Shown here: positions 7,541 through 57,054 of the stretch, in pieces
Position numbering within the stretch: position 1 is the stretch's first letter
Layout of the letters: the number at the start of each line of letters is the position of its first letter
Assembly (NCBI GenBank): GCA_007449985.2
Contig: VIIQ02000079.1
Span: forward strand, 124,001-188,000
DNA from: Desmodesmus armatus
Taxonomy: Eukaryota > Chlorophyta > Chlorophyceae > Sphaeropleales > Scenedesmaceae
Reading direction: 5' to 3'
Length of the DNA: 64,000 nucleotides
Program-made: the position numbers and the translations under genes
The notes under the pieces: generated by a model
Told to the model about the DNA's origin: nothing
The model's database searches: none
The model's input: the letters and a program-made list of their open reading frames with translations, nothing else

Positions 7541-10132
7541 TCACGCAGCTCCATCCCCACCACGGGATGGCTGTGTTCGGCAGTGGCAGCTGACGATGTG
7601 GTCGTTCACCAGCCCTGCTGCCTGCATGAAGGCGTACATGATGGTCGGACCCACAAAAGTCATCCCTGCCTTCTTCAGTGCTGCACTGAGGGCCTCTGAC
7701 TCAGGGGTCCTGCATGGAGACACCCATGGTGCACACACACAGCAAGACAGCAACAAAAGGGCAGCCTAATCATGCCCTAACAAGTGAAGCAGATGTTGGG
7801 CTTGACACGTATCTGCAAGCTTGAAAAGTCTGGTCAGCGCCGATGATGCGCATCAGGGCAGGGCTGGAGTGTTCAGCACACCAGGAAGCAGCTGCGCCAG
7901 CGTCATGAAGGCCCCATAGGCCAAGACCAGCCAGCAGCTGGTGCGGAACTGCTGCTCCAAGTAGCTGTGCTGCTGCGACTTTTTGAAGCCTGTCCCTGCC
8001 GAAGTGGCAGTGTGCAACTCCAATCGGACCGTGTTGGTGCAATGCAGCCCAGTGAACCAAGCTAGCAGCAGCCAACTAGAAAGGAGGTGGACACTCACTT
8101 GGTTGGCACCTGGCCGAGTGCCGTCCAGTTGTTGACGATTGGCTGTCTGTTGGGCACAAAGCCCCACACAAAGCTGTCAAAGCTGCCATGCGCATCCTGC
8201 AGCTGCAGGAAGACCCTGCAGAACAGCACACACCAAATCAAATCAAAGTTACACCTGTAGCTATGAGGCTGAAGAACATACTGGGAATAACAACACGGGT
8301 TACCTGCTACAGCCTTGACATGGCCGCCGAAAGCCAAGGTGTTGTGGTAATTCTGACCTATCAGACGCCATGAACGCTGCACCTCCACACCCCGTCACAC
8401 TGTGCCACTACTAGACCAGTATCTGCGTAGATCTAGACACTGCTGAGTGGCACTGCCTAGTACATGCACCTGCTTGGAAGCAGTCTCGCAGCAATTCATG
8501 GGGTGACCACTCTGCGTGCGTGCCGCTTCTGTAATGCACCACAAGACCAAACTTGCTCTGGTGCACACCCATAGCCTGCTGCTGCCCCTGCTCAACACTC
8601 CCAACCAGCACCTACAGGCGACTGTGCTGCAGCTGATTCAACCCGCACGCTCATGCAGGGGCCCACGGTCTGGTGGCATCCACTCCTTTTTCGAAGTGAC
8701 AGGGGGGAGGGGGCGGAAGCTCTTGGCTACGCACAGCAGATAGGTGTGCTTCCAAGCCTTTTATTGTCCAGGGACCTCAGATGATCCCTCTACATCTTGC
8801 CATGTCTGTGTGTGTTTTTTGGGGGGCTGGTCTTGCCTGACGTGTCTTTTGCAGGCTTCCTCGTGCCAGGTGTGCGTCTTTGGCTTGCCCAGTCGATCAA
8901 GTGTAGAGAGTACCGCTTTGGGGTGAAGGTATCTACTTGTAACACCCTCCCCCCCAAAAGAAATATCCACCACTCACATAGCGTCCACTCACTTGGCATT
9001 CTTCACAGCACCCTGCAGCTTGCCCCTGTGCCGCACCACACCTGACTCCTGAGACATCAGCTGCTCAATCTTTGCATCGTCATATGCAGCAACCTTGCTG
9101 GGGTCAAACTTGTCAAACCCTGCTCGATAAGCTTCCCGCTTTGCAAGGATGGTGCTCCAGCTCAGACCCGCCTGCGCGGTTGGCAGTAGCAGGAGCACAA
9201 CAAAGCACTGTACTGTGCTACTGTTGCCATGCACACAAACCTGCTGCGAGAGTGAAAAAGAGCCCAACAGAGCAAGGTAAAGGGCGGTTTTGCCTGCAGA
9301 CAGCAGCAGCACATAAAGCACAAAGCTTTCCCTTGAGGCCACCCAACCCCTGCCCTGTCGAGTGTGCCCAGTAGTGCAGGCCAGAACGAAATGGTCACCC
9401 ATAGTTCCATGCATGCAGGAGTACGTGGTGGCAACCTGCTGCTGCTGCTGCTGCTGGTTGCAAGGCACCCGCATGCCTATTCGTGCAACACCATGGCAAT
9501 GACGGTCATGGTTCCTGTGCGGCTGCAGTGCATGTGTGCATGCACACAGACTGCCACCACCCACCCCTCCCCACCTGGGCACCTTCCAGGATCAGCAACT
9601 CAAACAGCTTGCTGTCATCATGCTCTGGCCGGCCCCATTCCTCGTCATGATACCTGCACAGTTAGTACGAGGGAACAAACCGGACATTTGAGTGCTTTCA
9701 TGCTGGCCCATGTCATGCACCAACCCATGCTTCATGCGCTGCAGCGATCACAGCCGAACAGCTGCGTGATTATGAGGCACCCACAGAGGCAGCAACACCA
9801 TTTTCATCATACGTGATGTACTCTGCTGATGCTGTGCATTCTTTATGTTCTCTGCTGATGCTACACATAGCTGTACTTTGCTGAGGTTGTGCTTACCTGA
9901 TGTACTCTACTGATGCCGCGCCTTTGTACATTGTGGCCCAGTCACAGCGCTGCAGGCCATCTGAGGCAGCAGCAGTTAGCACTGATGCAGCAGACGGAGA
10001 GGGACCAGGGCTTTCGAGTGTATCCTTGGACAACGGTTTCCGTCGCCCTGCCACCGTTCTGCGCGTTTTTTTGGTGCTGGGATCATCGGCAGCCCTTTCC
10101 CCACCCCTTTGGGCTCTCGTGCGTTTCATCAT
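7541..10132 (-). CDS. DNA-3-methyladenine glycosylase I (TagI family)
   Basis: Base-excision repair enzyme that removes 3-methyladenine from alkylated DNA. Five exons (minus): 10132-9897, 9653-9575, 9171-8993, 8215-8099, 7709-7541; total 780 nt, 259 residues, every phase consistent, TGA stop. The start was put at MMKRTRAQRGG because a basic, Lys/Arg-rich stretch (candidate nuclear signal) follows. Family motifs appear in order: RCDWATMYKGAASVEYIR, YHDEEWGRPEHDD, KLFELLILEGAQAGLSWSTI, LAKREAYRAGFDKFDP, ESGVVRHRGKLQGAVKNA, SFVWGFV and finally KKAGMTFVGPTIMYAFMQA then GLVNDH. The usual Cys/His residues of the family's structural zinc site appear present (CDW near the N-terminus, HDEEW, NDH and a C-terminal HC), but the exact ligands were not aligned. 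Intron 1 carries degraded copies of the exon 1 end. Confidence 0.93.
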
Positions 10133-13548: not shown

Positions 13549-13567
13549 TGTTTAGGGTTTAGGGTTT
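13549..13567. repeat. Interstitial telomere-like repeat
   Basis: Two and a half units of TTTAGGG followed by a T run. TTTAGGG-type repeats are telomeric in plants and many green algae. Confidence 0.7.
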
Positions 13568-17570: not shown

Positions 17571-20500
17571 TCAATTCAGCACTGACTTTCTTCCTGTTCC
17601 TGCTCCTGCTGCTGCTGCTGCATCTCGGCTCTCAGCCATTGCTGCCTCCACCCCTGCTGCTGTCTTAGGCAGGCCTGTTGCATCAGTCAGGTTGAAGTGA
17701 GAGCCAGCTGTGATCACGACATTGTCCTCAATGCGAACCCCACCCATATCCATGAACTGATCCACTGCTGACCAATTGACACCAATCGCCTGCAAGCATC
17801 CAGTAGCACAACACGATACAGCGAGCAGCAGCAGCGGCAGCAGCACAGTGCAGCAGATCGCAGCACAGGAGCCGGCGGCTGTGGAGAATGACATGTGAGG
17901 CCACACCCATTGTGCCAATACTGAAGCGCAGCAATGTGCAAAGTTGCCACATGAATCCTGCCCAAGCTGTAGTGCCCCTGGTACTTGACCCTGATAAAAA
18001 CACAACCAAGCCGCAAGTTTACAATCGTTGTACCGGCCTGGTAGATGTCCTAGAAACTTCAAAAAGTCAATCTTAGTCAACTACCACCCCTCAGCTACTG
18101 CTAGGGGACCGCTCCAAGACAGCCAACCCACCCCAGCTACTGCCTACAGTACCAGCACTGTACTGCCAGGAGCGCAGCGCTGGGCAATGTTTACAAGGTG
18201 CCATAACAAAAAACACTGCTTGAGGCGTACTAGGTTCATCTTCGCCCAAACGGCCTCCATGCACCAGGCCACACCAGGGGTATTAATCATTATTACCCAT
18301 GATGGCGCAGCTGCTAGTACCCCCAAGCCACAGTGCAGAGCAAGTATAGATGTGATCGACGCATTGTGCTTCGTCTTTTTCTTGATCTAGAAGAAGAAGA
18401 AGTACAATGCGGTGATCACGTCTCTACATGTAATGCAAGTGACGAGCTGCATGTGCGCAAAGCCTGCGCGTAACACATGGCATATAAACAGCATGGATAT
18501 GCCACAACATGTACATGACAGACCCTGCCAGGTTCCAGCACCTGCACCACAACTGCGATTGGCCCATTTGTGTTTGCTGCAGAACTATTGATGATGCACT
18601 TGTGCAGGGCTATCCAGCCCCATCGCCGGGGCTGACATGAGCATGCACCCCCCCCCCAATGGTTACCATGTGGGAGAGTCAGCTTTCCAGTGGGTTTCAA
18701 GCCCAATGCCGGGGCTGACATGAGCATGCACGATTGTTCTGTGCGTTCCTATGTCAGCCCCGGCATTGGCCCACCATTGACCCACCGGATATGCCTAGCC
18801 CGCCCACACAGCAACCATCCAGGGGGGGGGGTCACACGTAAGATGTTCACTCCCTCCCCTTGCCATTAGTGGCTGAGTTGACTCCTCGCTTTTACTGCGA
18901 GCTGTTGCTAGGCCCGGCGATACAGAACGGAGCCGATATGAGCCTACCTCAGCCTGTGGCCCACTGCTGGGCGCGTCTACACCCCTGCTTGCCCATGACC
19001 GCAATACAAGCTTTTCTCTGCACACGCAGTCACACCTTTGTAGATATGTACACACACCTGTTTTGGGTCCTTCCTGCCTCTGGCTAGCAGCGTGGGCATG
19101 AAGTAAACGCCTGAAAGATGAAGGTAGCAGAAGCAGAACAGAAGCAGAAGCAGAAGCAGAGACAGTCAAAGACGGGTGCACGAAGATCCATCAGCAACAA
19201 AAGTGAAGAAGCAGCAGGCCAGTGAACACGCAGAGGGGTTTTGTGATATTGGCTGCACTGCAATCACAGCTAAAGCTTTCACCTGGCACCCACTTGTCAC
19301 AAAGAAATTCACAGCCCACCAAAGAGTTGGATTCGAGGGCCCGCACCCTGTGCACATGCCTCCATCTGCTGCCCCCCCCCTACCTGGTTCCACAGTGATG
19401 ATGTGTCCCTCCTGCAGCTGCTGCGGTATAGGCCCCACATCAGACACATCACACACATTCAGCACTGAAAGCTGCAAGTTCTTCCAGTTGCTGCAATACA
19501 TTCAATGGCTTCAATGGCAATCCAAGTTGGCCAGCCATCCCCTCAAGCCTTTGCCCTTCAACTACCTACAGCTATCTACATCTACAGTTATCAAAGTTGT
19601 TTCCCTAGCAAGGCAACACCGCCACCACCCCCTCCCCCCCCCCCCCCACACACACACCATGTCTCCCTACCTGGTTCCACAGTGATGACCTGTCCCTCCT
19701 GCAGCTGCTGTGGTATAGGCCCCACATCAGACACATCGTGCACATCCAGCCCCAGGAAGTGCCCCAAGCCATGGGGCATGAACAGCTTGTCAACCCCAGC
19801 CTCCAACAACCCCTCAACAGCACCACCAACCACCAGCCCCAACTGCTGCAGGTGCTGTAGCATCAGCAGCCGAGTGGAGCGCTGGATTGTGGCCCAAGAG
19901 ACGCCGGGTTTTAGGGCAGCGAGGGCGTGTAATTGCATGTCGAGGACGAGGTTGTAGATGTCGCGCTGCTGGGGGGTGAAGGAGCCTGAAGCGGGGAAGG
20001 TGCGTGTGATGTCGGCGGTGTAGCAGTTGTGCTCGGCACCTGAACGCACAACCACAAAGTAAACAGCAAAAATGAGGAAGGTGGTACATGAAGTGCTAGC
20101 TACAGGTCAGGAGGTGTATGTTGACACAGAGTGTGCATCCAGCCAATCCCTCTACCATCCAAAGTTGTGACAGTCCGAAGTTAGGTACAAGGGCGTGGGT
20201 ACGCCCAGCGAAAAACTTTATACTAGCATCAATTAAATCGGACAGCGTTCACCTGATCGGCTTGCCTCCTCTCTCTCCAGCACCCTCCAGACCTCGGCTG
20301 GCTGATTTTTCTGCTTGCTGCTTGCTGCTTAACTGCTGCTGCTTTCTGGCTGCATAGAGCTGCTATGACTGCATAGATGTGATATCGAGACTGCTTAGAG
20401 GGGCCACAACCCTCCTTACGGCATGGCAGGCAATAAGTCCCCCTTGTCCCACTAGAAATTACCTGCAGGCACAACGAAGCATTTCGGTAGGCAACCGGGT

Positions 20501-39289: not shown

Positions 39290-39329
<40 letters not shown>

Positions 39330-42054: not shown

Positions 42055-45000
42055 ATGTCTCTGGCGTTGATCAAGCTATGGCAGGTCCTGAGTGCAGTGA
42101 AGAACCGCCTGCAGGCCAGAACAGCAGCAAACTTCAGGCTGCGCATATCGCTGCTTGCTGCCTTCAGCATATTAAACGTGGGTTTGGGAGGATTGCTGTA
42201 CAAATGGATGGCAGCAGAGCAAAGCTGGGGGGAGGCCCTGTTCACAGTGTATGCGGTGAGTGAAACGTAATGGCAGTTGCTGTGTGTGTGTGTGTGTGTG
42301 TGTGTGTGGGGGGGGGGGGGTCAAGGTGTATGTGCTGAGTGCAAGGCACAGGCAGCTGCTCTGGGTGTGTGTGTTGGGGGGGGGGTCAAAGTGTATATGC
42401 TGTGTAAGGGGCATAGTGAGCTGCTCTGAGTGTGTGGGAGGAGGGCAGGCCAGGTTGACAGTGTATGCGGTGACTGAATGGCAATGGCAGTTGCTTTGGG
42501 TGTGCAGGGGAAGTGTGTGTGTGTGGGGGGGTGGGGGTGCACCTGCTGCCTGTCTGCATCACTTGGTTGATGGTTCTGACATCTGCAGCAGCCCCAGCAG
42601 CAGCAGCAGCAGGAACCAGCAGGCAACAGCAAGCAGCACCGCGGGGTTACCAGCACTGGCAGTGGTGGGGCCAAACCGCAGCTGCTGTTTGCTGAGGATT
42701 CTCCCATCAGGTTTTTGGAAGCGCTGCGTACATCTCTTGTCAAGGCAGCGTATGTATGCCTTGTGTGTCAGCGCCGTATCTTTTGCAGTGCTGAATGCAG
42801 TACGCCCTCGCATTCTATACAGCACATGGCACATGCGGTCACACCAAGTGCGTTGGGGCACCTGATAATGCTACAACTGACAGCAACCCCTTTGCATCAC
42901 AGATCGTGGAGAGGATTGAGTGCTCAGATTCATCTGCTGCTGACGCAACCCCAACTTCTCAGCTGTAACCATAGAGCGGCACTGCTTATGTGATGCCGGT
43001 GCTGACTGTTTTGTTTGTGTGCACTCCTGCCTGTGTGTTCAGGTGTTGTACTCCATTCCTGGTGCTGACATCACGCATGCACCCAGCAGGGCGGGAACAG
43101 TAGTGCTCAACCTCATATTCATCTTTGGACTGCTGGTGAGCAGCAGCAGCAGCAGCAATGCGACGGCAGCAGCAGCAGCAGCATGCAATGAGGCGGCAGC
43201 AGCATGCATTGTGGCAGCAGCAACAGCACCGGCAGCAGCATGCATTGTGGCGGCAGCAGATGCATCATGTAATGCGGCAGCAGCAGCAGCAGCAGCAGCA
43301 GCGGCGGCAGCAGCGGCAGCAGCATGCATTGTAGCAGCAGCAGCGTGCAATGCGGCGGCAGCAGCAGCAGCAGCAGCATGCAGTGCGGCAGCAGTCAGCG
43401 TCTCCAAAGCTGCGTCTCCACAGCAATATGATGATGTCGCCTGTTGCAGGTGTTTGCCAACATCCTGGCCATGATCATTGACCGTGAATGTGGCGGGCAC
43501 ATACCAACGGCCCCAATAGCCGACAGGCAACTTGCCGCCTTCATCCCTTACCATACCAATTTGCCACCCCATCTTGTGCTATCAGAGTTACAAACCTGTA
43601 CTGTCAAGGTGTCTGTGTGTCCTGCAGGTGTTTGCCACCATCCTGGCCATGATCACTGAGGAGGTCAACAGCTTCCTCATGGCAGCACGCAGCGGACGCG
43701 CTCCCCTGGACATGAGCGGACACATTCTGCTGCTCAACTGGAACGCACAGGTGAGTGTATGCCCACTGTGCCCTACATGCAGCAGCCCTCCTTTGCCCCC
43801 CCCCCCTCCCCCCCAGCACCCTGCATACCTTGGTGTCGAGTGCAGCTTGAATGTGTGGTAGGGCCTATGCATATGCAGCAGCATAATCAACACAACCTGC
43901 ATGCACGGCTGCTCACTGTTCTTCTTATGCTGCTGTTGTCGATTGACATGTACTGCTGCGCAGATTCCCTTCCTGCTGGATCAGTTTGAGGCGGTGCAGG
44001 CCAGTGTGGGCCCCACAGGGCGGGGCCGACACAAGCTGGCTGGGCGGCCGCTGGTGATCCTTGCTGACAAGGACAAAGAGGAAATGGATGCACTGGTAAG
44101 CAGCCTGATGTAGGGTGGTGTGGTCTCCTCCCTTTGAAACCCATGCTAGGAGGTACGGCAGCGCAGCTGATGCATCTGCATGTATTTATTGACAAACCAA
44201 CCCTATTTGGAGGTGGTGAAACCCCATGGTCAACCCCTGGGGGTGTTCTCCTAGGTTGCCTGCTCGTCCCATTGTTTAGTGTCGACATGAATATGCTTTG
44301 GCTCTTGAAAGGGCGGTCAGGCAGGGCCCAGTAGCAGTAAATGCACAAATGCACAAATGCACAGGGGGAAAGGGGGTGAGTGCCCGCCCGCTCACTTGCC
44401 CACCTGCTCATGCAGGCACGCACACGTGCTTGCATCCAGTCACTCGCCCACTTGCACCCCCCCTCTCTGTTCCCCTCTCTCACTCCTTTATTTTACCTGC
44501 CTCTCACTTCCTCCCACTGTTTGGTCCCAGGTGGTTGGCTTCATGCGCAAACACAAGCTAGAGGTACACACAAGGACAGGAAAGCCCTACAGGTAAACCC
44601 CATGCCCCAATCTACATGCTGCTTCACTACAGCTCGTGCTATGGGCTGCAAACATGTGACATTTACCCTGTAAACTGACATCAGGAACCTTTCCTGGTAA
44701 GGGCACATGAACAGCTGCCAACATGTACCCATGTACAGCTGGCAACTCTACATGTGTCTTGATAAGGAATAGTCCTGACGTCAGTTTACACAGCACATGT
44801 TACATGTGCTCATGGTGCTTGAAACCAATGGAGAATGCGCCTCGTCGGCTGCTTACGGGGTGTTCAGGCAGTCGTCAACCATGAACATCCAGAGTGACAG
44901 TGAAAGTAGTAGAAAGCAAAGCTTCAAGTCTGTCCCGTGACAAGAGATGGCGGCGCTTGCTGTCAGTCCATACAAATACAGCTGACGCGTTCATCCATGG

Positions 45001-45152
45001 TCATATTTTGTGCATATAGTTGGTGCCTAAGTGTACCCCTAGTGTGTGTGCCGATCTGCTGGCTTTGCCCCCCGTGGCGCTTGTAGGCTTGGGCACCTTG
45101 AGCGGGTGTCAGCAGCAGACGCTGCAGCACCCCTGGTGAGCCTGCAGCAGCC

Positions 45153-45184
<32 letters not shown>

Positions 45185-47878
45185 CCCCCTCCTCCCTCAC
45201 ACCAAGTTTGCCGCATCTGCCTGCGTGCCTGATGCACTCTGTCCCATTCCGCCCCCCTCCGCCCCGCATTCCGCCTCGTTCCGCCCCCATTCCGCCTCAT
45301 CCCGCTCCCATTCCGCCTCATTCCGCCCCACTCCGCCTCGTTCCGCCTTCATTCCGCCTCATTCCGCCTTCATTCCGCCTCACTCCGCCTCATTCTGCCT
45401 TCATTCCGCCTCATTCTGCCACATTCCGCCGCATCCCGCCCCATTCCGCCTCATTCCGCCCCACTCCGCCTCGTTCCGCCTTCATTCCGCCTCATTCTGC
45501 CTTCGTTCCGCCTCATTCTGCCACATTCCGCCGCATCCCGCCCCATTCCGCCTCATTCCGCCTTGTTCCTCCTAATTCCGCCTCATTCCGCACCCATTCC
45601 GCCTTATTCCGCCGCATTCCGCCTCATTCCGCTCCCATTCCGCCTCACTCCGCCTTATTCCGCCTCATTCCGCCCCCATTCCGCACCCATTCTGACCCAT
45701 TTCGCCCTATCATGCCCCTGTGTTGCTCTCTGCTGCCCGTCAGGTTGGAGCACCTCGAGCGCGTGTCAGCAGCAGCCGCTGCAGCAGTCCTTGTGCTACA
45801 TCCAGAGCCCGCAGCAGCAGATACAGCAGCGGATACAGCGGCAGATATAGCAGCAGATGGCACTGATGCTGCCGCAGAGAATACCGCGGGAGGCAGCTCG
45901 GCTCAGGGGTCTGGAGGGGGGGCAGGGGCAACAAGCAGCGGGAGCAGTAGGGCACGTGGGGGAGTGGATGGCGGTGCCGCTGCTCTGAAGATGCAGACAG
46001 TTATGGCATTGACGGCGCAGCTGATGGGACGCAAAGCTGCAGTGGTGGTGCAGGTGGGTGGGGGAGCGCCTTGCATTGGAAATGGCCTCAACAAAGCATG
46101 AGGGGTTGTCACGCTGGATTGAAGGCCTGACAGAGGGGACTGCTGGGTTTTCTTATGAGTGCATGTGCGGTTCAGGCTGGGGTGAGGTGCATGTGTGGAT
46201 GGCGGTGCTGCTGCTCTCAAGATGCAGACTGTTATGGCACTAACAGCATAGCTGATGGGCCGACACTTGGCAAGCCGCAGTGGTGGTGCAGGTGGGTGGG
46301 GTGCGGTCAAGTGGGGGGTTTGTGTTGTAGGGGTTTGGCGGTTTATCCGTGGGGCTTTGGGGGGTACTGAGAAGATGGATGTGGTGAGCAGGGTGGCGGG
46401 CAGGAGAAGTGGTAGGGGTGGGGGTGCATGTGGGGTTTTGGATGGAACTGCTGCTGCTCTCAAGATGCGGACTGTTAGGGCATTGACGGCACAGCTGATG
46501 GGGCGGCGAGCCGCAGTGGTGGTGCAGGTGGGGGGGGGGGGGGCGGCTTGTACCTTTTGGGTTGGAACACAATCAAATTTCATGCTTGCAAAAAGTCAGT
46601 GTGGTGCTGATAGTTGGGTTCTTGGGGTGACAGCGCAGCATTTTGCTGCTTGCGGATGTTGTGACTGTATGGTTTGTGTGCACACGAGATATGCTGTGCT
46701 GAGATGACTCACTAGGTTTTCTTACGCCTTTTATTTTCAAATTCACAAGTCAAGGCTTCCACCTGCAGGGGCAAGAGGTGCGGCGTTTTGTGAAGAGAGG
46801 AAGCTGATGTTCCATGATGTGGCCCAAAAGTGATGATGATGCACAGCAACATGCTGTGCTGTGCTGTGCTGTGCTGTGTTGTGCAGGTACCTGAGTCTGA
46901 CAGTTGCACTGGCGGCAGCAGGATGTCGTGTCAATTTGAGGTGAACCACCACTGCTGTGCTGTGCTGTGCTATGACTTGAAGTGGCTTTGATCATGCCGC
47001 ATCCCATCACATCCCATCACATCACATCACGACCTTCCACAGCCTCTTCAAGTAGTGTGCCGTGAAACCATAAGCTCATGACGACACATCATCCATCAGC
47101 AAGCGTGCTGAGGCATCTGTAATGTTCACATACGGTGCTGCTGCTGGGCATGAATGCGCACCTTTCCTGTAATTAGATAGCCATGTTTCTGCGATAGTCA
47201 GTACCCTGAGGGAACATGTCAACAGGTGGGTGCGTTACAAACAGGTAAACATTCCAAAAAACCGCACTAGTCATCGGTCCAAGTGATACACTCCACTGCC
47301 GCAACCACCTTGACAAATCACTCCTTCCATGAATTTGTGTGAGGTGGCCTGCTACAAACATCCACAACTGCCCCCCCCCCTCTTTCCACCCCTGCTGCTG
47401 CTGTTCAGATGTTGGACAAGGTTCTTGCTCGTGCGGGACATGATGTGGGGCTACTGGAGCTGCCGGTCAAACGCATGGTCAACAGGTGGGGGGGGGGCAG
47501 GCTTGTGCGCAAGACACTGAGCTTGGATCAAGGCACAGGTGAAAACTTATGATGATGCAAGCCGTGTTGGACAGGGTTCACTTGAGAGGAACAGCTGGGG
47601 ATGCAAGGCACATCAGCTCCCTCCAATTTGGAGACTTCTGATGTGTGTGTTGGGGGCGGGGGGAGGGGGGAGAGGTGTGTGGGGGGGAGCACCTGTGTGC
47701 ACACGCATGTGGGTGAGTGGGGGGTGGGGGCTACTGGAGCTGCCAGTCAAACGCATTGGTCAACAGGTCGGGGCACACGCTCGTGTGTTAGTTCAAAGCA
47801 TACACGGGCAGCTAGCATATAGCGTACATGCAGCCCTAGTCCGGCTCGGTTCACTGCTGCTGAAACCTGCTGCTGCAA

Positions 47879-47911
<33 letters not shown>

Positions 47912-49742
47912 GCTGCTGCTGCTGCCTCCTGTCACACAGTCTAGCAGTCCAAGCCACCCTCCAGCCTGGTCAGCCTCCATCTACACTCAACTGCTGCAAC
48001 ACGGGCGACAACCTGACCTCACCTTCAACCACCTACCCCCCTCCCTAGATATCCATGTAAAACAACCTGTGCACTGAACGCCTGTGCTGCTGCTGCTGCT
48101 GCTGCTGCTGCTTCTCACTCCCTTCCTGCTGTCACACAGTCTAGCGGTTCAAGCCACCCTCCAGCCCTGGTCAGCATCCATCTACACTCAACTGCTGCAA
48201 CACGGGCGGCAACCTGACCTCACTTTCCACCACCTACCCCCCACCCTCTTCAAAAAGGCACCCCCCTCCTCCCAGTCCTTCAACCCCTGGGTCTCCGCCC
48301 CACCAGCAGCAGCAGCAGCAGCAGTAGAGGGGCTGCTGCTGCTGCTGAATGCGGATTGTCTACTAGCTTCAGCCTAAGGACGAGCAGTACTGTCTTCAAA
48401 CGGCCTAGCAGCAATTTACTTGCACATGGCACAGCAGCAGCAGCAGCAGCAGTAGGATCAGGAGGGTCTATCAGTAGTAGAGGGCAGCTTAGGTCTTATA
48501 ATTCGTACACCCCCGGCGTGGGGCTTACGGCTGGCGTCCAGTCAGCAGCAGCAGCAGCAGGAGCAGCAGCAGGAGCAGCGGGGGTGCCAGAGGGGGCCTT
48601 GCTGTATGAAGAGGTTCGGTTGAGGTATGAGAGCAGCGGCAGCATTGTGGTGGGGTACTACAGCAGCAGCAGTCAGGAGCTGGTGCTGAACCCTGGGAGG
48701 GGGTGCTGGTGTGAGGCGGGGGATGTGTTGGTGGCGCTGACACGCACATCAGGTGAGGTGGGGGAGGGTGGGGGGGGGGGGAGAGGGAGGGAGTGGGGGA
48801 GGGAGTCGGGGGGGGGGGGATTGAGTGAGTGAGGGAAGGGTGTGAGTGAGGGGGAGGGGTAGCACATTACAAAACAGGCTGGTGTGAGGGGGGCAGATGT
48901 GTTGGTGGCACTGACACGCACATCAGGTCAGGCCTGAGGAACCTTTGGGGGGGGGGGGAGGTGAGCGTGAGCGAAAGGGGGGGGGGGGAGTAAGGGGGAG
49001 TGCAGCAGGTGTGGAAGGAGGTATATTTGTATTGTAGTTGCACTGCACTGCTGTGTGTGTGTCTCTGTAGGTCACACTTCCTCAGTGTGCCGCAACATGC
49101 ACCTGCTGCTCACGTCGTGTTTGTCACTGTACCGTGCTTGTTGGTAGTGTAATTGCTTTGCACTGCTGTGAAAGCACTGCTTTGATTTTGATCTCACTCA
49201 GCAACAAAGCAAACCAGTCAAGTCGGTACGTATTGGGAACTTGCGTCTGTACGTATAAGGAACTTGAGATGAATGTAGTTGCACTGCACTCCTCTGTGTG
49301 TCTGCAGGTCACACCTCCTCAGTGTGGGGCACCATGTGGAGGCCTCTGCTCAGCATCCTCAACTCCAACACCCAGCACAGCAGCAGCAGCAGCAGCAGCA
49401 AGCAGCCGTCGGCAAAGCAGCCGCCTCAGCAGCAGTGGCGGCTGCAGCCGCATCAGCCGTCACTGCTGCCGGCACAAATAACGACACCCGGGTAGCCCAG
49501 CAGCAGCAGCAGCCATCAGCAGCAGCTGGAAAACAGTCAGTCAACACTAATAACACCCTTCACAGTCAGCAGCAGCAGCAGCAGTACGGGCACAGTCAGC
49601 AGCACATCCTAGGTATGAGGAGGCAGGGCAGGTCTAGCCTTGCCCCCATTGTAGAGGCTAGCTCAGACACACCTCCACCAGCATCACTGTCACCAGCATC
49701 ACAACAGCAGCAGCAGAAGGAGGGGTTCGGGAATCAGCAGCA

Positions 49743-49773
<31 letters not shown>

Positions 49774-52700
49774 GGGTCAAGCCGCTGTGGAGATAATCAG
49801 CAGCAGCAGGACCAGGGGCAGTGTGAGTCAAGTGTGCCTTGTCCCAGTTCCCCCCCTGAACACGGCTCCCACTGGGAGTCCCCCTTTGCAAAGCTTTCGA
49901 CAGCTACCGTCACAACTGCCACAACTGCCAACAACACACAGGATGACCTCTCCCCGTTTGCAGCAGTGTCAGCAGCATGTGACGATGAGGGAGCAGAAGT
50001 GTTTTTGGAAACAGACCCCTGCTGCTGCCGCAACCGCCAGCTACAGCCCCTGCTGCAGCAGCATCAACAGCAGCAACAGTTGCAGGAGGATCCAGCCCCG
50101 CGCCTTCAGATAGGATGTCCCCGGTTCAAACCCCACCAGCGGCATCAGGGTTTAGCATGTCAAAAGGGTCGTTCGCGTCCCAAAACCCTGGCGGGGTTGG
50201 GTCCCTGCGGTCTGCCCCCTCCTGGCTGTTTAGTGCCAGGAAGGTTCTAGCACAGCAGGACCATCAGGCCGCTGCACAGCGGCTGATGCGGGCGGCGGCT
50301 GGTGGCAGCAATGGCGGCAGCGGTGGCAGCAATGGCAGCAATGGCGGCGGCCAGAGCAGTCAGCAGTACCTTCAGGGAGACCAGCAGCGCTATGTGGTGG
50401 TGGCAGGTGCGTAGGCCCTGACCTAGTGAAGTAGTAGTGGTAGTATGTGGGGTGAAGCAACCGGATCTTGAATTCGACTGTTGTTTCTGATGTGGGTTGC
50501 AGCAACCAGATTCCGGATTCAACTGTCCTTTGGATATTGACAGATCAATCTACCTCTCCATCACTTCCCCGCGCCCCCCTCACCCTATACATCAGCACCC
50601 TGGGGGTTGCCCACGCACCCACTGAACGTGTGCAAGCTGACATTTATGATGACAAACACCTCCCCCCCCCCTCCCTCCCCCCCCCCCCCCGCGCCTCCCC
50701 CCTGCAGGTTTCACTGCTCAGGAGTGTGCCCAGGACCTGCTGCCTCACTTCCTGGACTTCGCACCAGCCGGCAGCCGTGTAGTGTTTGCTGTGGGGCCAT
50801 TTGAGGAGCCCCCTCCTGAGTTTGATTACGAGGGGACTGTGGAGGAAGATGAGGACAGGGGGATGGCCGGCCACCCATTCTGCACCAGGTGCACTACAGG
50901 TATGTATGCTGCTTGTGTTGGTGAAGGGTGGTGCTGGGCATGGGTGAATACCATTGGCATGGTCTCTTTCTTGGGCTTGACTATGAGGGAACTGTGGAGG
51001 GGGATGAAGACAGGGGGGATGGCCGGCCCCCCATCCTGCACCAGGTGCACTACAGGAATGTAGACTGGCACTTGCTCCTCAAGTTGGTAGGGTAAGGGTT
51101 CAGGTTGAAACCCTAAACCCCCAAACCCTAAAACCTAATCATAACCCTAAACCAGTTGAACACCACATGTACACTGGCACTAGCTGCTTCAGTACGCACG
51201 GGATGGTTCTAGGCATTGGCAGTGCTTACTGGGCCACTTAGGCTGTCACTTGGACGCCTTGAAACTCAAGTTTTGTCAGAGTACATTCCTTGGTGCTACG
51301 AGGGAACTGTGGAGGAGGACGGGGGCACAGGGGGGTTTAGCCGGCCCCCCATTCTGCACCAGGTGCACTACAGGTGTGTACAATGGATCTCGCTGCTTGG
51401 GTTGGGGGCGCAGCCGGGCATGGGTGGTGGTTTCTGGACCACTTGTGATTTCACTTGAACTTTATGAAACTCAAGTGTTGCTGGAGTTGGTTTCGTCCTT
51501 GGGTCTTGAGGGTACTGTGGGGGCATATGACGACCCAGGGGGGTTTAGCCGGCCCCCCATTCTGCACCAGGTGCACTACAGGTGTGTACAATGGATCTCG
51601 CTGCTTGGGTTGGGGGCGCAGCCGGGCGTGGGTGGTGGTTACTGGGCCACTTATGCGCTCAGGTGAACTTGATGAAACACAAGTAATGTTTGCAAGAATC
51701 AGTTTCGTCCTTGGGTCTTGAGGGTACTGTGGGGGACCCCCAAATTGCACCAGGTACACTACATGTATGTAACCTGGCACTCTCTCCTCAAGTTGGCAGA
51801 GGACCCCCCCCCTGCAGGTTCATCCAGGTCGGCTACCACTTAAGGCTCAACACACCCCCAGAAACGCTGTACCCTAACACCATCAACCCTAAACCCCAAC
51901 TCCCCCAATATGTGACCGTGCTGCTGTTGGGTGCATGTTGCAGGTTCATCCAAGTTGCCTACCCCACAAGTGCTGAAGGTCTGCAGGCTGCGGGTGTGTT
52001 GGAGGCGGATGCCTTGCTGTTGGCAGCAGAGGAGGGCACACGGGGCAACAGTGCTGAAGCAGACGCACAGGTGCGGTGCAGGGTGGTGGTGTTGGGGGTG
52101 GGGAGGCAGACATCGGGTCGGGCGCAAGTCCAAAAGGCAAGTGTTTTGTGCAAAATCTGCAGACAGCTGTCACTGCTTGCGTGGCTCGCCTCATGAGCAA
52201 TCCCTGCCTCCTATCCCTTCCTGCACCCCCCCCCCAGTGATATCCTGCCCCTTCCCACACCTTCCCCCCCCCTCCAGCGTGGGTTCTTGGCAGCATGGTT
52301 GAGCTGCAGCACCTGTTGGCCCCCACACACTGCCATCCACGCCACTGTTAGCCCCCCCCCCCTCCACCCCCGCCTCCCATCCCTCACACCTGCATTCCCA
52401 TCCTCCATACACCTGCCCTCCCTCCCTCTCCCTGCCCTCCAACGTGGCTCCTGCTGCTGCTGCCATCCCCACCCAACCCCCCCTCCTGCCCCCCCTCATT
52501 CCCTATGCCATAGGTCCTAGGCAGCATGGTTGAGCTGCAACACCTGTTGGCCCACAGCGAGCGCTACCAACGCACACACAGCTTGGGACCCTTCGCCACC
52601 CACAGCAACGGCGGCGCCGCCGCTGGCAGCAGCAGCAGCAGCAAAACCCCGGACCGCAGGTCCAGCTGGGGCCGCAAGCGCCCTAGCTTCCGCCACTCTA

Positions 52701-52953
52701 CACCCAATGGCAGTATGGAGGCCCGCTCAGACTCGTCCGATGACCCTATGCCGCAGATTGCTGCTGCTGCTACAGCCGCCGTCGCTGCTGCTGCTGCTGC
52801 TGCAGAGAGCAGTGGGGGTGGGGAGGGTGAGGGTAGGGATAGCAGCAGCAGCAGGCGTGGGGGTGATGTTTGGGAGCCAACGTGGGATGAGGTAGAGGGG
52901 GTTGGGAGTGGACAGCTGTCCTCTCAAGGCATCCAACAGCACAAGCTGAACCT

Positions 52954-52986
<33 letters not shown>

Positions 52987-54547
52987 GCAGGGCAGAGGTC
53001 TGAAAGAAGCAGCGGCAGTGCCTCGACAGCAGCGGCAGCAGCAGCAGGGTGTGCTGCATGTCGTGGCGTGTGTTAGCAACACTGCTTCAAAGGCCGTGGC
53101 TGCCGCCTTTTTTGGCACTATGGGTCCCGACGCAGCAGCAGCAGCAGCAGCAGCGGCCAAGGGCAGTAGGAAGCATGGGGCTAGTGACAGCAGCAGTGTG
53201 GTGGGGGCCTGTGAGTTCAGTTATGAGCTGATTGTGCCTGGTGAGGTTGAGAGTGCGGTGCTGGTGCAGGTGGCTGGGGAGCCCCTGTATACACGGTGAG
53301 TGGTGGGCCGTGTGTTTTGTGTGGGTGGGTGTGTGGGTGTGGTGGTGGGGGGGGGGGGGGGAGGGGGTGTACTAGTATTGGTCGGCTGAGTGCGTGTTGA
53401 GACCAACACAGAGATGGTCTCAGCTGCCCAAAAAATGGCTGGGGAGCCCCTGTACACACGGGTGGGTGGTGGCCCGGGGGGGGGGGGGGGGGGGGCTCTA
53501 TCCGTAGGGTGAGGGTGTGCGATAGTTCATAGGGGGAGGGTGTGTAGTTGGTGTCAGTTGCCCAAGTGGCTGAGGAGCCCCTGTATACACGGGTGAGTGG
53601 TGGGCCGTGTGTTTAGTGTGGGTGTGGGTGTGGGTGGTGGTGGTGGTGGGGGGGGGTAAAGGGCGGGAAGGGGGGGGGACAATCGGCAGGCTGAGTGCGT
53701 GTTGATACCCACACAGAGTTTGTGCCAGTTGCTCGAGTGGCTGGGGAGCCCCTGTACACACGGGTGAGTGGTGAGCCGAGGGGGGGGGGGGGTTGCTATC
53801 CGTAGGGGAAGGGTGTGTTGATGCCAACACGTAGTTGGTGTCAGTTCCCCAGTGGCTGGGGAGCCGCTGCTAATCAAAATGAACTTTTACCCAGGGGGTC
53901 AACCCTCTTTGTAATCAGCCCCTTACACGGGTGAGTGGTGGGCTTCTTTGGAGGCGGTTCTCGTCAGTAGGCGGAGTGGCTGCTGCACTGGCTGAACCAC
54001 TTGCCTGCCTGCCTTTTCCCCTCCAACTCACACTCCTGCTCCCACCAGGTTGTTCAAGGACTAAACTGCCACCCTGCCTGCCCTGCCTTCCTTATACCCT
54101 GCCACCTAATCCTCCTGCCAGGTGGTTCATGAGCTGTTGGGCACTCCCCAAAGGCCGCGTGTGTTGTTGGCAGATTGCACATGTCTAGTACGGGATTCAA
54201 TGTGCCTTTCGTCCTCACAACTGCCTCCTGGCTCCTGTTTGGTTGTTCACGAACTGAACGCAACCCTGTCCTGCCTTCCTTATACCTGCTTTTTCCAGGT
54301 GGTACACGAACTGCTGGGCACCCCCGAAGGCTGCGAGCTGTACCTGCTGTCCCCATCAACCTTCAGCTGCTGCAGCGGGGAGGTGGTGCGGTTTGCTGAG
54401 CTGCAAGCTGTTGGGCGAATGGTGAACAAGACAGTGATAGGGGTGGTGGCGGCAGGCAGGGTGGTGTTGGCTCCTGGGCGGGAGTGGCGCTGGTGTGTGC
54501 AGGATGGGGACAGAGTTGCGGTACTGGCGCTGTCGTGGGAGTGTTGA
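42055..54547 (+). CDS. CASTOR/POLLUX (DMI1)-like ion channel
   Basis: Cation channel of the CASTOR/POLLUX/DMI1 family, which in land plants acts in nuclear-envelope calcium signalling. Exons: 42055-42255, 43043-43135, 43628-43750, 43964-44095, 44531-44592, 45744-46053, 46887-46940, 47409-47485, 48140-48752, 49308-50406, 50708-50899, 51944-52070, 52514-53295, 54299-54547 (TGA); about 1372 residues after repair. Order: basic N-terminus, membrane helix (LLAAFSILNVGLGGLLYKW), pore-like loop (YSIPGADITHA), second helix (VVLNLIFIFGLLVFATILAM), family motif MSGHILLLNWN, then RCK-type regions: [53 protein letters not shown], and a final VIGVVAAGRVVLAPG, RVAVLAL. Long poly-Gln/Ser/Ala inserts make it larger than plant relatives. 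Five exons are one base short (about 48360, 49401, 50098, 50875, 53295). Localisation in algae is unknown; the start Met is the first in frame. Confidence 0.85.
42320..42500 (+). repeat. Three copies of channel exon 1 end plus donor
   Basis: The exon end (CAGTGTATGCGGTGAGTGAA, then TGGCAGTTGCT) is repeated at about 42320, 42387 and 42452, alternating with GT and G tracts. Confidence 0.82.
43138..43400 (+). repeat. (GCA)n/(GCG)n array
   Basis: About 260 bp of AGC/GCA triplets with recurring GCATGCA and GCAATGCGG interruptions, immediately after the donor of channel exon 2. Not coding. Confidence 0.88.
43450..43495 (+). repeat. Copy of channel exon 3 start
   Basis: GCAG acceptor plus VFANILAMII-like codons, 178 bp upstream of the complete exon at 43628 (VFATILAMIT). 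Confidence 0.85.
44654..44805. repeat. Imperfect inverted repeat, arms about 75 nt
   Basis: GTAAACTGACATCAGGA near 44670 is matched by TCCTGACGTCAGTTTAC near 44771; pairing extends outward through CATGTG and inward through CAGCTGCCAACATGTAC / GTACAGCTGGCAAC. It lies in the channel intron after exon 5 and is a candidate MITE or hairpin RNA. Confidence 0.82.
45087..45145 (+). repeat. Decayed copy of channel exon 6 start
   Basis: HLERVSAADAAA-like codons after a GTAG acceptor, resembling the exon at 45744 ([14 protein letters not shown]); separated from it by the decamer minisatellite. Confidence 0.8.
45243..45706 (+). repeat. CATTCCGCCT decamer minisatellite
   Basis: About 460 bp of 10-bp CATTCCGCCT-type units with variants (CACTCCGCCT, CATTCTGCCT, CCCATTCCGC). 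Ten bases is not a codon multiple, yet no frame has a stop, which explains a 351-codon open frame (45046-46101) that is not itself a gene. Confidence 0.9.
46195..46530 (+). repeat. Two copies of channel exon 6 end plus donor
   Basis: Segments at 46197-46291 and 46438-46529 reproduce the coding end of the exon at 45744-46053 (KMRTVRALTAQLMGRRAAVV-like) and its CAG|GTGGG donor. The second copy is open and nearly intact. Confidence 0.9.
46857..46886 (+). repeat. (TGTGC)n acceptor tract
   Basis: Five to six TGCTG/TGTGC pentamers run straight into the CAG acceptor of channel exon 7. A similar tract precedes the exon at 56434. Confidence 0.85.
47725..48055 (+). repeat. Copies of channel exon 8 end and exon 9 start
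   Basis: At 47728-47767, GGGCTACTGGAGCTGCC to AACAG|GT copies the exon 8 end. At 47935-48045, CACACAGTCTAGC onward copies the exon 9 start (real one at 48140) for about 110 bp, then diverges. Confidence 0.88.
48880..48935 (+). repeat. Copy of channel exon 9 end
   Basis: GATGTGTTGGTGGCACTGAC and the ACACGCACATCAG|GT end copied about 175 bp downstream of the real donor (48752). Confidence 0.87.
50980..51775 (+). repeat. Four copies of channel exon 11 end
   Basis: Copies of GAGGGAACTGTGGAGG to TGCACCAGGTGCACTACAG lie at about 50985-51058, 51297-51373 and 51509-51591, plus a decayed one at 51719-51765. The second and third share about 100 bp of following intron (GTGTGTACAATGGATCTCGC), so the unit spans the donor. 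Confidence 0.9.
51107..51156. repeat. Interstitial telomere-like CCCTAAA repeats
   Basis: Four degenerate CCCTAAA units (AACCCTAAACC types) within a channel intron; opposite orientation to the motif at 13549. Confidence 0.75.
51810..52335 (+). repeat. Copies of channel exon 12 and exon 13 starts
   Basis: CAGGTTCATCCAGGTCGGCTAC at 51815 copies the exon 12 start (real 51944). TTCTTGGCAGCATGGTTGAGC onward at about 52283-52325 copies the exon 13 start (real 52514). Confidence 0.85.
53430..53945 (+). repeat. Serial copies of channel exon 13 end plus donor
   Basis: GGCTGGGGAGCCCCTGTACA to CACGGGTGAGTGG recurs at 53439-53465, 53566-53601 and 53736-53774, with fragments at 53850-53870 and 53923-53941. 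The spacing is about 130-170 bp. All complete copies read CGGGTGAG or CGGGTGGG, one G more than the real junction. Confidence 0.9.
54047..54275 (+). repeat. Copies of channel exon 14 start
   Basis: Three graded copies of VVHELLGTP-coding sequence: weak at 54049, good at 54119-54160 (GGTGGTTCATGAGCTGTTGG) and weak at 54239, before the real exon at 54299. Confidence 0.85.
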
Positions 54548-55069: not shown

Positions 55070-57054
55070 ATGAGCCACTTTTGGGCAACCGCTGTGGCCT
55101 TATGCCTGCTGCTTTCTGGAGCAGCAGCACAGTCCTGTCCGAGCGCTGTTTGCAAAGCAGACTTCTCCAACGCGATGGGTGGCCCGATAGACTGCTGTAA
55201 ATGGGACTATAACAAGGGCACATGTCGCTGGTGAGTGTACAGCACGCTTGTTTTCCGGTCTGTGTCTCATCTATGCTGTGTCAGCATCCTTCTCCCAGGG
55301 GGTCCCTGTTGTGCTGATGTGTGGTCAAACGTTATTCACCTTGACAAACGGATCTGCAGCTCAACATGAAACCACCGTATAGTCCGATTGCGCCTTGCCT
55401 TGACCCACCCGGGCGCAACATGTTGGCACAACATATGTTTAGGGGTGGCACTCCTGTGCGCTGCGTGCTGTTGTGCTCGTGTACCGTCAACACTTTGCTG
55501 ATTTACAAACCCCACACATCCAGCATACAAGCACCATGCACTCAGCTGCATTGCTGACTTGACACATCCACTTGACGTAACCACTGGTTGGTATGTCCGC
55601 AGGGGTGGCACGCCTGTGAGCTTCAGGCTGGTACGCACCTGCACTGATGGCGGCAAGTCCTACCCAGTCCTGATTGGAAGCAACACACAGGGACCACCCA
55701 GCAATGCAGAGTGCCGCTGCGGCAACGCACAGGGGCCACAGTTCTCAGTGCTGCAGGTAGGACGGGGGCCGGGGGGGGGGGGGGGGCTGGCTTTGTGTGG
55801 TTTTGTTTGTGGATGGTTTTCTAACAGACACCACAGCACATGCGGCAGCAGCACACACGGGCCACCCAGCAACGCAGAGTGCCGCTGCGGCAATGCACAG
55901 GGACCACAGTTCTCAGTGCTCCAGGTAGGGTAGGGGGTTTTGTGCAGGTGTACCTTTTGGTTAAGGTGACCCATATGTAGTTATGGGGGGGGGGGTGCCA
56001 AATTATGCCACAGGGGCACTTTTTAGGTGCCCCTATCCCATGGCTGTGTTGCCCCACCCAAGGACGGCCCGGTGATAGCAAGCCAGGGTATGAGCCCTAA
56101 GTAACATATAACTATGTCGATGACAAGTTAAAACCATCATTGGGCCGGATGGCTTGTGTACCATGCCGACACAGCACTTGCAGCACTGACACACAGGGGC
56201 CACCCATCAATGTAGACTGTGGCTGTGCAATGCACAAGAAGCACAGTTGCTGGTGCTAAAGGCTCTGCAAGGGATGTGTGCTGGCGCTGTGTTGACCTCA
56301 GCTTCACACAGCATTGGCAGCCAGTGACCGTCACTGCTAGGCTAGCAGCAGGCGCAGCAGCAACTCCACCCCATACCATTACCACCAGCTTACACCCAGC
56401 TGCTGTGCTGTGCTGTGCCGTGCTGTGCTGCAGGCCTGTATCAGCATGAAGCCTCGTGTTGACATGGACATCAGTGGCCAGGACATACCCTGCAAGAGCA
56501 ACCAGTTCTGCCAAGTGTGTGGCTCGATAGAGGACGTCAAGAATGCATGCATGCAGGACAACAGGTGCGTTGGTGACGGTGCTTCTTTGATCCTGGGCCT
56601 GAACATGTGGCAGCAACAGTAGCAGTATGTTGCTATGAGGGTTTTGCCAGGGCAGTGCACAGGGTAGATATGTGCCCCCAAGGGAAGGGTTGCTTGCGTG
56701 TGGGGGCTTGGTTCAACCATGGCATGTGACCAGGGGGTGCCATATCTACCCTGCGCAGCAGGTTGTTTTGTGCTGTGTTGTTGCAGAAGGTGCTCAGCTG
56801 AGAAACATACTGGATACCAATGATGTATGAGGGGCTAAATAGAGGTCAAATGCACTTTCTGCACTGCCTCCATCATTTCATATGTGTCGTTATCCAGTGT
56901 TGACACCCTCTCCATGCTGCTGCCTTCCTGCTGTTTCTGTGTTGTGCACAGGTGTGTTGCCTTCAGCTACGAGACATCCACCAGCTGTGGATACCTCAAG
57001 ACAGCTCCATTCTACAAGGAACGCAAGGGTTGGGTGGCCTATACCAGGGACTAA
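55070..57054 (+). CDS. Secreted cysteine-rich protein with C-terminal PAN/apple-like domain
   Basis: Four exons: 55070-55230, 55603-55756, 56434-56564, 56952-57054; 549 nt, 182 residues, TAA stop, all phases consistent. The first 21 residues (MSHFWATAVALCLLLSGAAA) form a clear signal peptide. The middle is Cys-rich (CPSAVC, DCCKWDYNKGTCRW, AECRCGNAQGPQF). The C-terminal half has the PAN/apple pattern: NQFCQVCGSIEDVKNACMQD, then CVAFSYETSTSCGYLKTAPF and GWVAYTR. PAN domains bind carbohydrate or protein ligands outside the cell, so a wall or extracellular adhesion role is a fair inference, not shown. The start was set at the Met before the hydrophobic stretch. Partial copies of exon 2 lie on both sides of it. 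Confidence 0.8.
55440..56275 (+). repeat. Copies of exon 2 of the PAN-like gene
   Basis: A copy of the exon start lies upstream at 55440-55470 (GGGGTGGCACTCCTGTG). Copies of its end lie downstream: 55851-55928, nearly identical and with its own GTAGGG donor, and a decayed one at 56190-56250. The first downstream copy stays in frame with exon 2 through the G-run but cannot be spliced in phase. Confidence 0.88.

What the first reader, a model, noticed from the sequence alone, without database searches (positions are those of the whole stretch)
9800..57000. Introns carry copies of their own exon-intron junctions ('junction echoes')
In at least six genes (TagI, M24B peptidase, DRC5, ALDH, channel, PAN-like) introns contain partial copies of the adjacent exon edges, about forty in all. 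The geometry is regular: copies of an exon's 3' end plus donor lie downstream of it, and copies of acceptor plus exon start lie upstream. Whole-exon copies are not seen. Ages range from near-identical to barely readable. This suggests introns grow by repeated short tandem duplication across splice junctions, leaving arrays of decoy splice sites. I know of intron gain by tandem duplication, but not of this dense, gene-wide junction duplication. The alternative is generic slippage in a repeat-rich genome.
Basis: partly seen in the sequence, partly recalled or inferred. Interest (0 to 1): 0.85.

Follow-up and report, generated by a model that had tools for sequence, protein, structure and literature searches.

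The report
Exon-edge copies in algal introns
In some genes of a green alga the introns hold many dead copies of the neighbouring exon edges, left by repeated small local duplications that cross the splice junction more often than chance placement predicts; why they favour the junction is not yet known.

Summary
The echoes are real. With protein-guided models of five genes, 14 of 39 donor and 11 of 41 acceptor edges have a local copy above a remote-sequence control, in the stated geometry; one more edge goes the wrong way, and 1 of 184 intergenic points is positive. In the four echo-bearing genes 30 local-duplication families touch an exon and 10 are intron-only (at most 35% exon-touching expected by placement, p=3e-7). 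TagI has none (0 of 7). Copies decay like unconstrained sequence. A metagenome relative carries a 149-nt tandem array at the same M24B exon end: tandem birth, recurrence across species, no assembly artefact. In 20 other 10-kb loci the effect is patchy: a Prp31-type gene is as rich (10 of 30 predicted edges), 14 of 21 gene chains have none. The geometry follows from selection; the junction bias, and loss of homology within about 15 nt of the splice site, do not. Best reading: recurrent short-range tandem duplication in hot genes, filtered by selection, exon parts outliving intron flanks. New variant of a known kind.

The parts
19378..19463 (-). copy of M24B exon 3' end + donor (parent edge 19671)
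   Evidence: 80 exon nt at 0.91 + 6 intron nt identical, then no homology; offset 287
20758..20807 (-). copy of M24B acceptor + exon start (parent edge 20039)
   Evidence: 47 exon nt at 0.89 + 3 intron nt
20114..20741 (.). dispersed repeat (looks non-LTR-like, truncated) between the preceding echo and its exon, flanked by its own 22-bp direct repeat
   Evidence: 44 genomic matches, most beginning near one point; direct repeat 20114-20135 / 20720-20741
22007..22092 (-). copy of M24B acceptor + exon start (parent edge 21789), offset 281
   Evidence: 77 exon nt 0.86, 191 intron nt 0.70, spacer 10
22380..22466 (-). second copy of the same M24B acceptor edge 21789
   Evidence: 51 exon nt 0.92 + 14 intron nt
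22954..23245 (-). two copies of M24B exon 3' end + donor (parent edge 23379)
   Evidence: offsets 240 and 391
25640..25736 (+). copy of DRC5 acceptor + exon start (parent 25829)
   Evidence: offset 133, homology on both sides of the junction
26265..26308 (+). copy of DRC5 exon end + donor (parent 26085); short, below the strict rule
   Evidence: offset 198
27043..27125 (+). copy of DRC5 acceptor + exon start (parent 27215)
   Evidence: 60 exon nt 0.88, 26 intron nt 0.81
28343..28397 (+). copy of DRC5 exon start (parent 28458)
   Evidence: begins 9 nt inside the exon
28768..28892 (+). copy of DRC5 exon end (parent about 28668)
   Evidence: 125 exon nt 0.89, intron side lost at once
32065..32419 (+). 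two copies of ALDH exon end + donor (parent 31953)
   Evidence: offsets 149 and 456
33244..33322 (+). copy of ALDH exon end + donor (parent 33177)
   Evidence: offset 108, near-tandem
34237..34739 (+). three copies of ALDH exon end + donor (parent 34165)
   Evidence: about 34237-34330 (0.92, one stop), 34428-34519, 34646-34739 (0.96)
36219..36304 (+). copy of ALDH acceptor + exon start (parent 36421)
   Evidence: offset 160
36612..36650 (+). copy of ALDH exon end + donor (parent 36512)
   Evidence: 32 exon nt 0.97, donor kept, then no homology; below the G-rich window control, passes (33 against 28)
37968..38499 (+). 123-nt tandem array (4.3 copies) of ALDH acceptor + exon start (parent 38599)
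   Evidence: TRF 93%
38847..38932 (+). copy of ALDH exon end + donor (parent 38745)
40037..40067 (+). copy of last ALDH exon end in the 3' flank (parent 39846-39876): not a splice junction
   Evidence: 84%
42305..42538 (+). two copies of channel exon end + donor (parent 42255)
   Evidence: offsets 79 and 214
43445..43481 (+). copy of channel acceptor + exon start (parent 43628)
   Evidence: 37 nt from -5 to +32; exon part 0.94
45065..45129 (+). copy of channel acceptor + exon start (parent 45744), now separated by the 45243-45707 satellite
46195..46542 (+). two copies of channel exon end + donor (parent 46053)
47727..47773 (+). copy of channel exon end + donor (parent 47485)
   Evidence: 39 exon nt 0.97; flanks share nothing above control; spacer essentially single-copy
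47887..48046 (+). copy of channel acceptor + exon start (parent 48140)
   Evidence: 108 exon nt 0.93, 76 intron nt 0.84
48881..48965 (+). copy of channel exon end + donor (parent 48752)
   Evidence: 48 exon nt 0.94
49033..49099 (+). copy of a probable channel acceptor + exon start (parent about 49.3 kb, exon model weak)
   Evidence: 84%
50969..51799 (+). array of copies of a channel exon end + donor (first copy ends about 50.91 kb; which copy is the used exon is ambiguous)
51813..51850 (+). copy of channel acceptor + exon start (parent 51944); below the strict rule
   Evidence: 79%
52254..52325 (+). copy of channel acceptor + exon start (parent 52514)
53563..53778 (+). two copies of channel exon end + donor (parent about 53297)
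54077..54164 (+). copy of channel acceptor + exon start (parent 54299)
55844..56284 (+). two copies of the PAN-like gene's exon end + donor (parent 55676-55768)
   Evidence: 55844-55936 at 88%; 56147-56284 at 70% to the second copy; frame read by eye, no protein model

Best explanation
Short-range tandem duplications (offsets mostly about 80-300 nt) recur in a subset of genes of this alga. Those that cross one edge of an exon survive because splicing at the outermost intact edge still gives the old mRNA; the second copy is left inside the intron and drifts. Each event lengthens the intron and leaves a copied splice signal. Shown: local copies at 25 of 80 tested edges with one-way geometry, neutral decay of the copies, complete tandem units in some pairs and in a relative, excess of exon-touching over intron-only families in the window. 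Inferred: the likely trigger is break or nick repair with fill-in synthesis near the exon edge, helped by long sense-strand G runs behind donors. Inferred too: the exon part stays readable longer than the intron flank because one copy of it (the exon) is under selection, while intron flanks turn over, are filled with G-rich or inserted DNA, or were joined with filler at birth.
For: Edges with copies 25 of 80, direction 25:1 (p=8e-7). Of the 30, one is the 3'-flank copy, one is weak (23620/23850, 73%) and two rest on weakly modelled exons; without these it is 26 of 36. The scan finds simulated intron-only and donor-crossing tandem duplications equally well (199 and 200 of 200; false positives 29 of 200). 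Differences in exon parts of 32 copies: 90 synonymous, 124 not (0.42); I expect about 0.39 for a dead copy beside a constrained exon, and 0.245 per random change. Relative P0008: exon in frame, a copy 149 nt on in another frame (score 110; best of 300 codon shuffles 75) and the start of a third at 298 nt (weaker, score 40, no shuffle control). Echo donors have a G run of 10 or more within 150 nt in 10 of 14 cases, other donors (TagI left out) in 2 of 22 (p=2e-4). In rice, tandem duplications are the commonest insertions, enriched at 50-200 bp, and attributed to repair of adjacent nicks (PMC7971508, passages read).
Against: In the 32 of 38 copies whose 30 exon nt next to the edge are at least 0.80 identical, mean ungapped identity falls from 0.91 (last 20 exon nt) to 0.65 at intron +2-6 and 0.34 at +15-20 (background 0.30). 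In 8 of 9 pairs tested the two intron flanks do not exceed the 95% control, although by my estimate a duplication of that age should leave about 85% identity. In 20 other loci, with predicted edges of which 57-61% were right when the same settings were tried on the window (donors 28 of 49, acceptors 30 of 49), donors are positive in 20 of 207 (15 downstream) and acceptors in 12 of 206 (6 up, 6 down), against 30 of 453 intron mid-points; combined direction p=0.055. Without L043 acceptors run against the rule (2 right, 5 wrong). The G-run link at gene level (rho 0.44, p=0.03, 24 genes; 2 short chains left out) vanishes in the 19 other-locus genes alone (rho 0.03), and acceptors show no such link. 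A motif-only test was weak (strong donors in 9 of 49 duplications, 4.2 expected, 49 of 119 events kept). The simulation covers intact tandem pairs only.
Confidence: 0.62

Rival explanations
1. Old tandem duplications whose exon part is kept alive by gene conversion: the functional exon repeatedly overwrites its echo, so exon parts stay 90-97% identical while intron flanks diverge beyond recognition. Junction duplications then look enriched because only they have a selected template.
For: Would explain at once the excess over intron-only families, the sharp end of homology at the splice site, and high exon identity with lost flanks (D19671, D36512, D47485, L043 edges).
Against: No conversion tract was shown; several pairs keep both flanks (A25829, A48140, D42255). 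The neutral spectrum of differences does not test it.
Confidence: 0.2
2. Generic slippage or random tandem duplication in a repeat-rich genome, with no junction bias; exon-touching cases are only easier to see.
For: Tandem and simple repeats abound; outside hot genes there is little excess; the motif-only test is weak.
Confidence: 0.1
3. Echoes are target-site duplications of inserted elements (copy - element - copy).
For: Many pairs have a non-homologous spacer; the A20039 spacer holds a dispersed repeat.
Against: That repeat has its own 22-bp direct repeat inside the spacer, so it looks like a later arrival; two other spacers match elsewhere only in pieces of 31-64 bp; arrays of 3-5 copies and the 149-nt array do not fit.
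Confidence: 0.03
4. Assembly or haplotype artefact: diverged alleles or misjoined reads strung together at exons.
For: One-base frame breaks in ALDH exons (aligner events) and a one-base difference at the 53297 donor suggest imperfect homopolymers; copies resemble diverged alleles.
Against: The M24B protein search finds only weak other loci; an independent metagenome protein shows an echo at the same exon with another period; copies have a wide range of ages; a repeat with its own direct repeat has landed inside one unit.
Confidence: 0.05

Closest known systems
[quoted passage not shown] review PMC3443670, passages read; potato RdRp case PMC4974935, abstract read; Drosophila PMC2891723, abstract read)
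   Same: Tandem duplication of exonic sequence carrying splice signals; in the potato case the unit crosses an intron-exon boundary.
   Different: Those make a new intron; here existing introns are lengthened, the exon edge is kept, and many edges of one gene are hit, some repeatedly.
Short tandem duplications from repair of adjacent nicks / staggered breaks (rice: PMC7971508, passages read, which cites Vaughn and Bennetzen 2014 and Schiml 2016; CST-Pol alpha fill-in: PMC8355091, abstract read)
   Same: Unit sizes of about 50-200 bp, simple tandem form, not TE-made.
   Different: No bias to exon edges is reported in the passages seen; here exon-touching units dominate in hot genes.
Tandem exon duplication (mutually exclusive exons) [recalled]
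   Same: Local duplication of exon sequence into introns.
   Different: No whole exon copy seen; copies lack one splice site and decay neutrally.
Introner elements / TE-born introns [recalled]
   Same: Also described in green algae.
   Different: No shared element between the three spacers searched; the copies are of the neighbouring exon.

Membership tests
Short tandem duplication by break or nick repair | Two copies head to tail, direct orientation, offset equal to unit length | tested here: inconclusive
   Complete or nearly so in some pairs (A21789 268 nt of 281, A48140 184 of 198, ALDH 123-nt array, relative's 149-nt array); many others have a spacer of tens to hundreds of nt
Short tandem duplication by break or nick repair | Unit size about 50-300 bp, not a mobile element | tested here: met
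   Offsets of nearest copies mostly 79-300; two of three spacers searched essentially single-copy
Short tandem duplication by break or nick repair | Break or fill-in intermediates | not testable with these tools
   needs experiment
[quoted passage not shown]
   Models place the intron from the outermost copy to the next exon
Tandem exon duplication | Whole exon with both splice sites copied, coding constraint | tested here: not met
   No whole exon seen; 90 synonymous against 124 other changes over 32 copies
TE target-site duplication / introner | Spacer is a repeat family whose ends abut the copies | tested here: not met
   1 of 3 spacers searched is a repeat and it has its own direct repeat inside
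Gene conversion between exon and echo | Conversion tracts shared by both copies | not tested
   needs population or sister-species DNA

The most novel reading that the evidence does not exclude
Duplication in this lineage is steered to, or preserved at, splice junctions: copies start inside an exon and end at the splice signal, so that the splice site itself (through co-transcriptional R-loops at G-rich donors, a splice-signal microhomology, or exon-templated conversion of the copies) sets the boundary. Introns of hot genes would then grow by adding dead exon edges and decoy splice sites one after another, independently at the same edges in different species.
Probability: 0.27. Interest if true: 0.85.

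Novelty: new variant of a known kind. Interest (0 to 1): 0.6.

Why it matters
How introns lengthen without transposons is an open question. These genes offer stepwise records of growth at single introns, with a built-in clock (dead copy beside a constrained exon), and a test bed for whether transcription or splicing directs local duplication. Arrays of copied donors and acceptors also confuse gene annotation and may burden the spliceosome.

Tried and rejected
Target-site duplication of inserted elements: rejected from three spacer searches and the sequence. Functional or coding echoes: a few pairs are rich in synonymous changes (23379: 13 of 16; 27215: 6 of 7), but the whole set fits dead copies. 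Loss of power in G-rich introns: rejected by simulation; the first run used an unmatched control sequence and was repeated with the window as control, with a negative control at 29 of 200. Annotation-free motif test: weak. The first alignment script compared regions with themselves and was discarded. A home-made gene finder was tuned; at the settings used for the other loci it was right for 28 of 49 donors and 30 of 49 acceptors in the window, so those figures are diluted; filtering on codon score (at least 2) leaves donors 19 of 183 (15 right) and acceptors 11 of 182 (6 right). A 100%-identical 67-nt pair in L045 overlaps no predicted exon and was left out. Read-through tails of other relatives showed no further convincing echo (P0206 and P0233 look like the real exon read in another frame; P0078 undecided). 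The DRC5 donor near 28668 stayed uncertain. The PAN-like gene was not modelled.

Literature: nothing describing gene-wide exon-edge copies appeared in the listings (titles and starts of abstracts); one search found no paper, one general review. The library holds open-licence papers only.
Full report
SOURCE. The window is G000:C75:124001-188000 of a 115.8-Mb, 831-contig assembly. The closest named proteins are from green algae (Scenedesmus sp., Chromochloris, Tetradesmus), at 49-70% identity over the aligned parts. I infer a chlorophyte of the Sphaeropleales.

GENE MODELS. I wrote a GT-AG, phase-aware protein-to-DNA aligner and used relatives' proteins (P0001-P0004 for M24B; P0121, P0126, P0132, P0135, P0156 for DRC5; P0241, P0242 for the channel) and E. 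coli PuuC, AldA and Tag. Junctions look canonical: most acceptors end in CAG and most donors resemble GTGAGT. Of the 96 edges of 48 exons I kept 80 (39 donors, 41 acceptors); 16 at doubtful or terminal positions were dropped.

OBSERVATION. One search compared 90 nt around each edge with the flanking 2.5 kb and with the rest of the window. One search repeated the test with a fixed rule (score at least 4 above the best match in 60 kb from other loci; the copy must reach the edge): 14 of 39 donors with a downstream copy, 11 of 41 acceptors with an upstream copy, 1 donor (51581) the wrong way. Per gene: TagI 0 of 7, M24B 4 of 14, DRC5 3 of 8, ALDH 7 of 28, channel 11 of 23. Controls: 1 of 184 intergenic points, 3 of 24 exon mid-points, 24 of 117 intron points (these include the copies). 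The edges are listed. Some copies visible in alignments (at 26085, 28458, 51944) do not pass this rule, and one that passes (43135) is CAG-rich and weak.

IS IT MORE THAN RANDOM DUPLICATION? A blind scan of the window at 3,194 points found 468 positives, which collapse into 51 families: 30 touch an exon, 10 are intron-only in the modelled genes, 11 lie outside the models. One of the 11 (18590-18739) is in fact in the last M24B intron if its weakly supported last exon is right, and one of the 10 (20110/20720) is the direct repeat of an inserted element; the two swaps leave 30 and 10, the 30 of 40 used. Of the ten, three are simple-sequence or satellite tracts (33650, 43130, 45210) and two continue junction arrays (21870, 26140). 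Of the thirty, one is the 3'-flank copy (39840), one is weak (23620, 73%), two rest on weakly modelled exons (49010, 50790). Simulated duplications of the observed sizes and ages, with homopolymer change, were found in 199 of 200 intron-only and 200 of 200 donor-crossing cases; without a duplication 29 of 200 were called.

ANATOMY. Banded alignments show a gradient. Some pairs are near-complete tandem units with homology on both sides of the junction (A21789, A25829, A48140, D33177, the ALDH 38599 array). Others keep 30-125 nt of exon at 0.89-0.97 but lose homology within 0-15 nt on the intron side (D19671, D28668, D36512, D47485, A43628, A20039; also L043 edges 2555 and 4982 in another locus). 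The averaged profile of 32 of 38 copies falls from 0.91 in the last 20 exon nt to 0.84, 0.65, 0.55, 0.46 and 0.34 over intron positions 0-2, 2-6, 6-10, 10-15 and 15-20 (background 0.30). The exon-side plateau is partly imposed by the filter; the intron-side fall is not. In direct comparison the two flanks exceed the 95% control in 1 of 9 pairs (34165).

DECAY. In the exon parts of 32 copies 90 changes are synonymous and 124 not (0.42). I expect about 0.39 for a dead copy beside a constrained exon and much more for a coding copy; stop codons: one.

LATER INSERTIONS. The 20039 copy is 765 nt from its exon because a dispersed repeat flanked by its own 22-bp direct repeat lies between them; without those 606 nt the offset is about 159. 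The 45065 copy is separated by a satellite. So some large spacers are secondary. Two other spacers match elsewhere only in short pieces.

A RELATIVE. P0008 (259 aa; a cluster of 9 sequences on 4 contigs, the longest 19.8 kb; 86% identical over 40% of my query) reads from the same M24B exon into the intron. Its tail matches the exon end in another frame (score 110; 300 codon-shuffled controls reach 75, also E=3e-9), 149 nt after the original, and starts again in the third frame at 298 nt (weaker, score 40; offsets computed). That is a tandem array of exon end, donor and intron head at the same edge but with another period (149 against 287), which I read as an independent event. The short tails of P0005 and P0012 show no echo.

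ELSEWHERE IN THE GENOME. Twenty 10-kb stretches at round coordinates of large contigs gave 547 positives of 9,880 scan points. With predicted edges (57-61% right at these settings in the window) donors are positive in 20 of 207 (15 downstream), acceptors in 12 of 206 (6 and 6), intron mid-points in 30 of 453, exon mid-points in 6 of 142, unassigned points in 20 of 592. One gene, L043, has 10 of 30 edges in the right direction and 3 in the wrong one; it encodes a Prp31-type splicing factor (Pfam Prp31_C and Nop above cut-off). L049, dynein-heavy-chain-like (Pfam matches below cut-off), has 3 of 34; 14 of 21 chains have none. Without L043, donors are 9 right and 3 wrong of 192, acceptors 2 right and 5 wrong of 191. 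So echoes are a property of hot genes, and this window is unusually rich.

POSSIBLE DRIVER. Echo donors in the window carry a run of 10 or more G within 150 nt in 10 of 14 cases, other donors (TagI left out) in 2 of 22 (p=2e-4). Introns of M24B, ALDH, channel and L043 have 1.2-2.9 runs of 8 or more G per kb, the other genes listed 0-0.5; DRC5 is an exception (0.27 with 3 of 8 edges). The correlation over 24 genes is modest and absent in the 19 other-locus genes alone. G runs may be cause, consequence or a shared mark of fast-changing introns.

MECHANISM. Committed reading (inferred): fill-in repair of nicks or staggered breaks near exon edges makes tandem units; purifying selection discards units inside exons and whole-exon units that change the mRNA, and keeps units that leave an intact outermost edge. 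This gives the geometry for free. What stays open is the bias over intron-only units and the sharp boundary at the splice site; conversion from the exon, filler at birth, or hypermutable intron heads could each do it.

VERDICT. Observation confirmed in four modelled genes and, by eye, a fifth (PAN-like), not in TagI; interpretation partly supported; a new variant of the known class of short tandem duplications and of intron change by tandem duplication.

Noticed in passing
window 20114-20741: Dispersed repeat with a near-constant end and a 22-bp direct repeat at its sides; 44 genomic matches (40 of 384 candidates scored); looks like a truncated non-LTR retroelement.
   Followed up: partly
window about 34085, 38680, 53297: One-base frame breaks or differences in exons; may be homopolymer errors of the assembly.
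   Followed up: no
window 45243-45707: Decamer satellite (CCCATTCCGC unit, about 45 copies) inside a channel intron.
   Followed up: no
window 11124-11516: Degenerate repeat with offsets that are multiples of 42 nt (84, 126, 210, 252, 294) in an open frame, probably a coiled-coil-like protein.
   Followed up: no
L043 (C26:500001-510000): A Prp31-type splicing-factor gene with the same dense donor echoes as the window: a splicing-factor gene full of copied splice signals.
   Followed up: partly
L050:3224-6156, L051:7483-7917, L044:7662-7967, L036:525-1340: Long tandem arrays in other loci (offsets in multiples of 129, 43, 52 and 255), not examined further.
   Followed up: no
window 34-40 kb: Introns of ALDH are strongly G-rich on the sense strand, with a GC skew of up to 0.29.
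   Followed up: partly
window 42055-54538: The channel gene is CASTOR/POLLUX-type (PF06241 is listed for its relative P0242) with about 15 or more exons; several exon borders remain uncertain.
   Followed up: no
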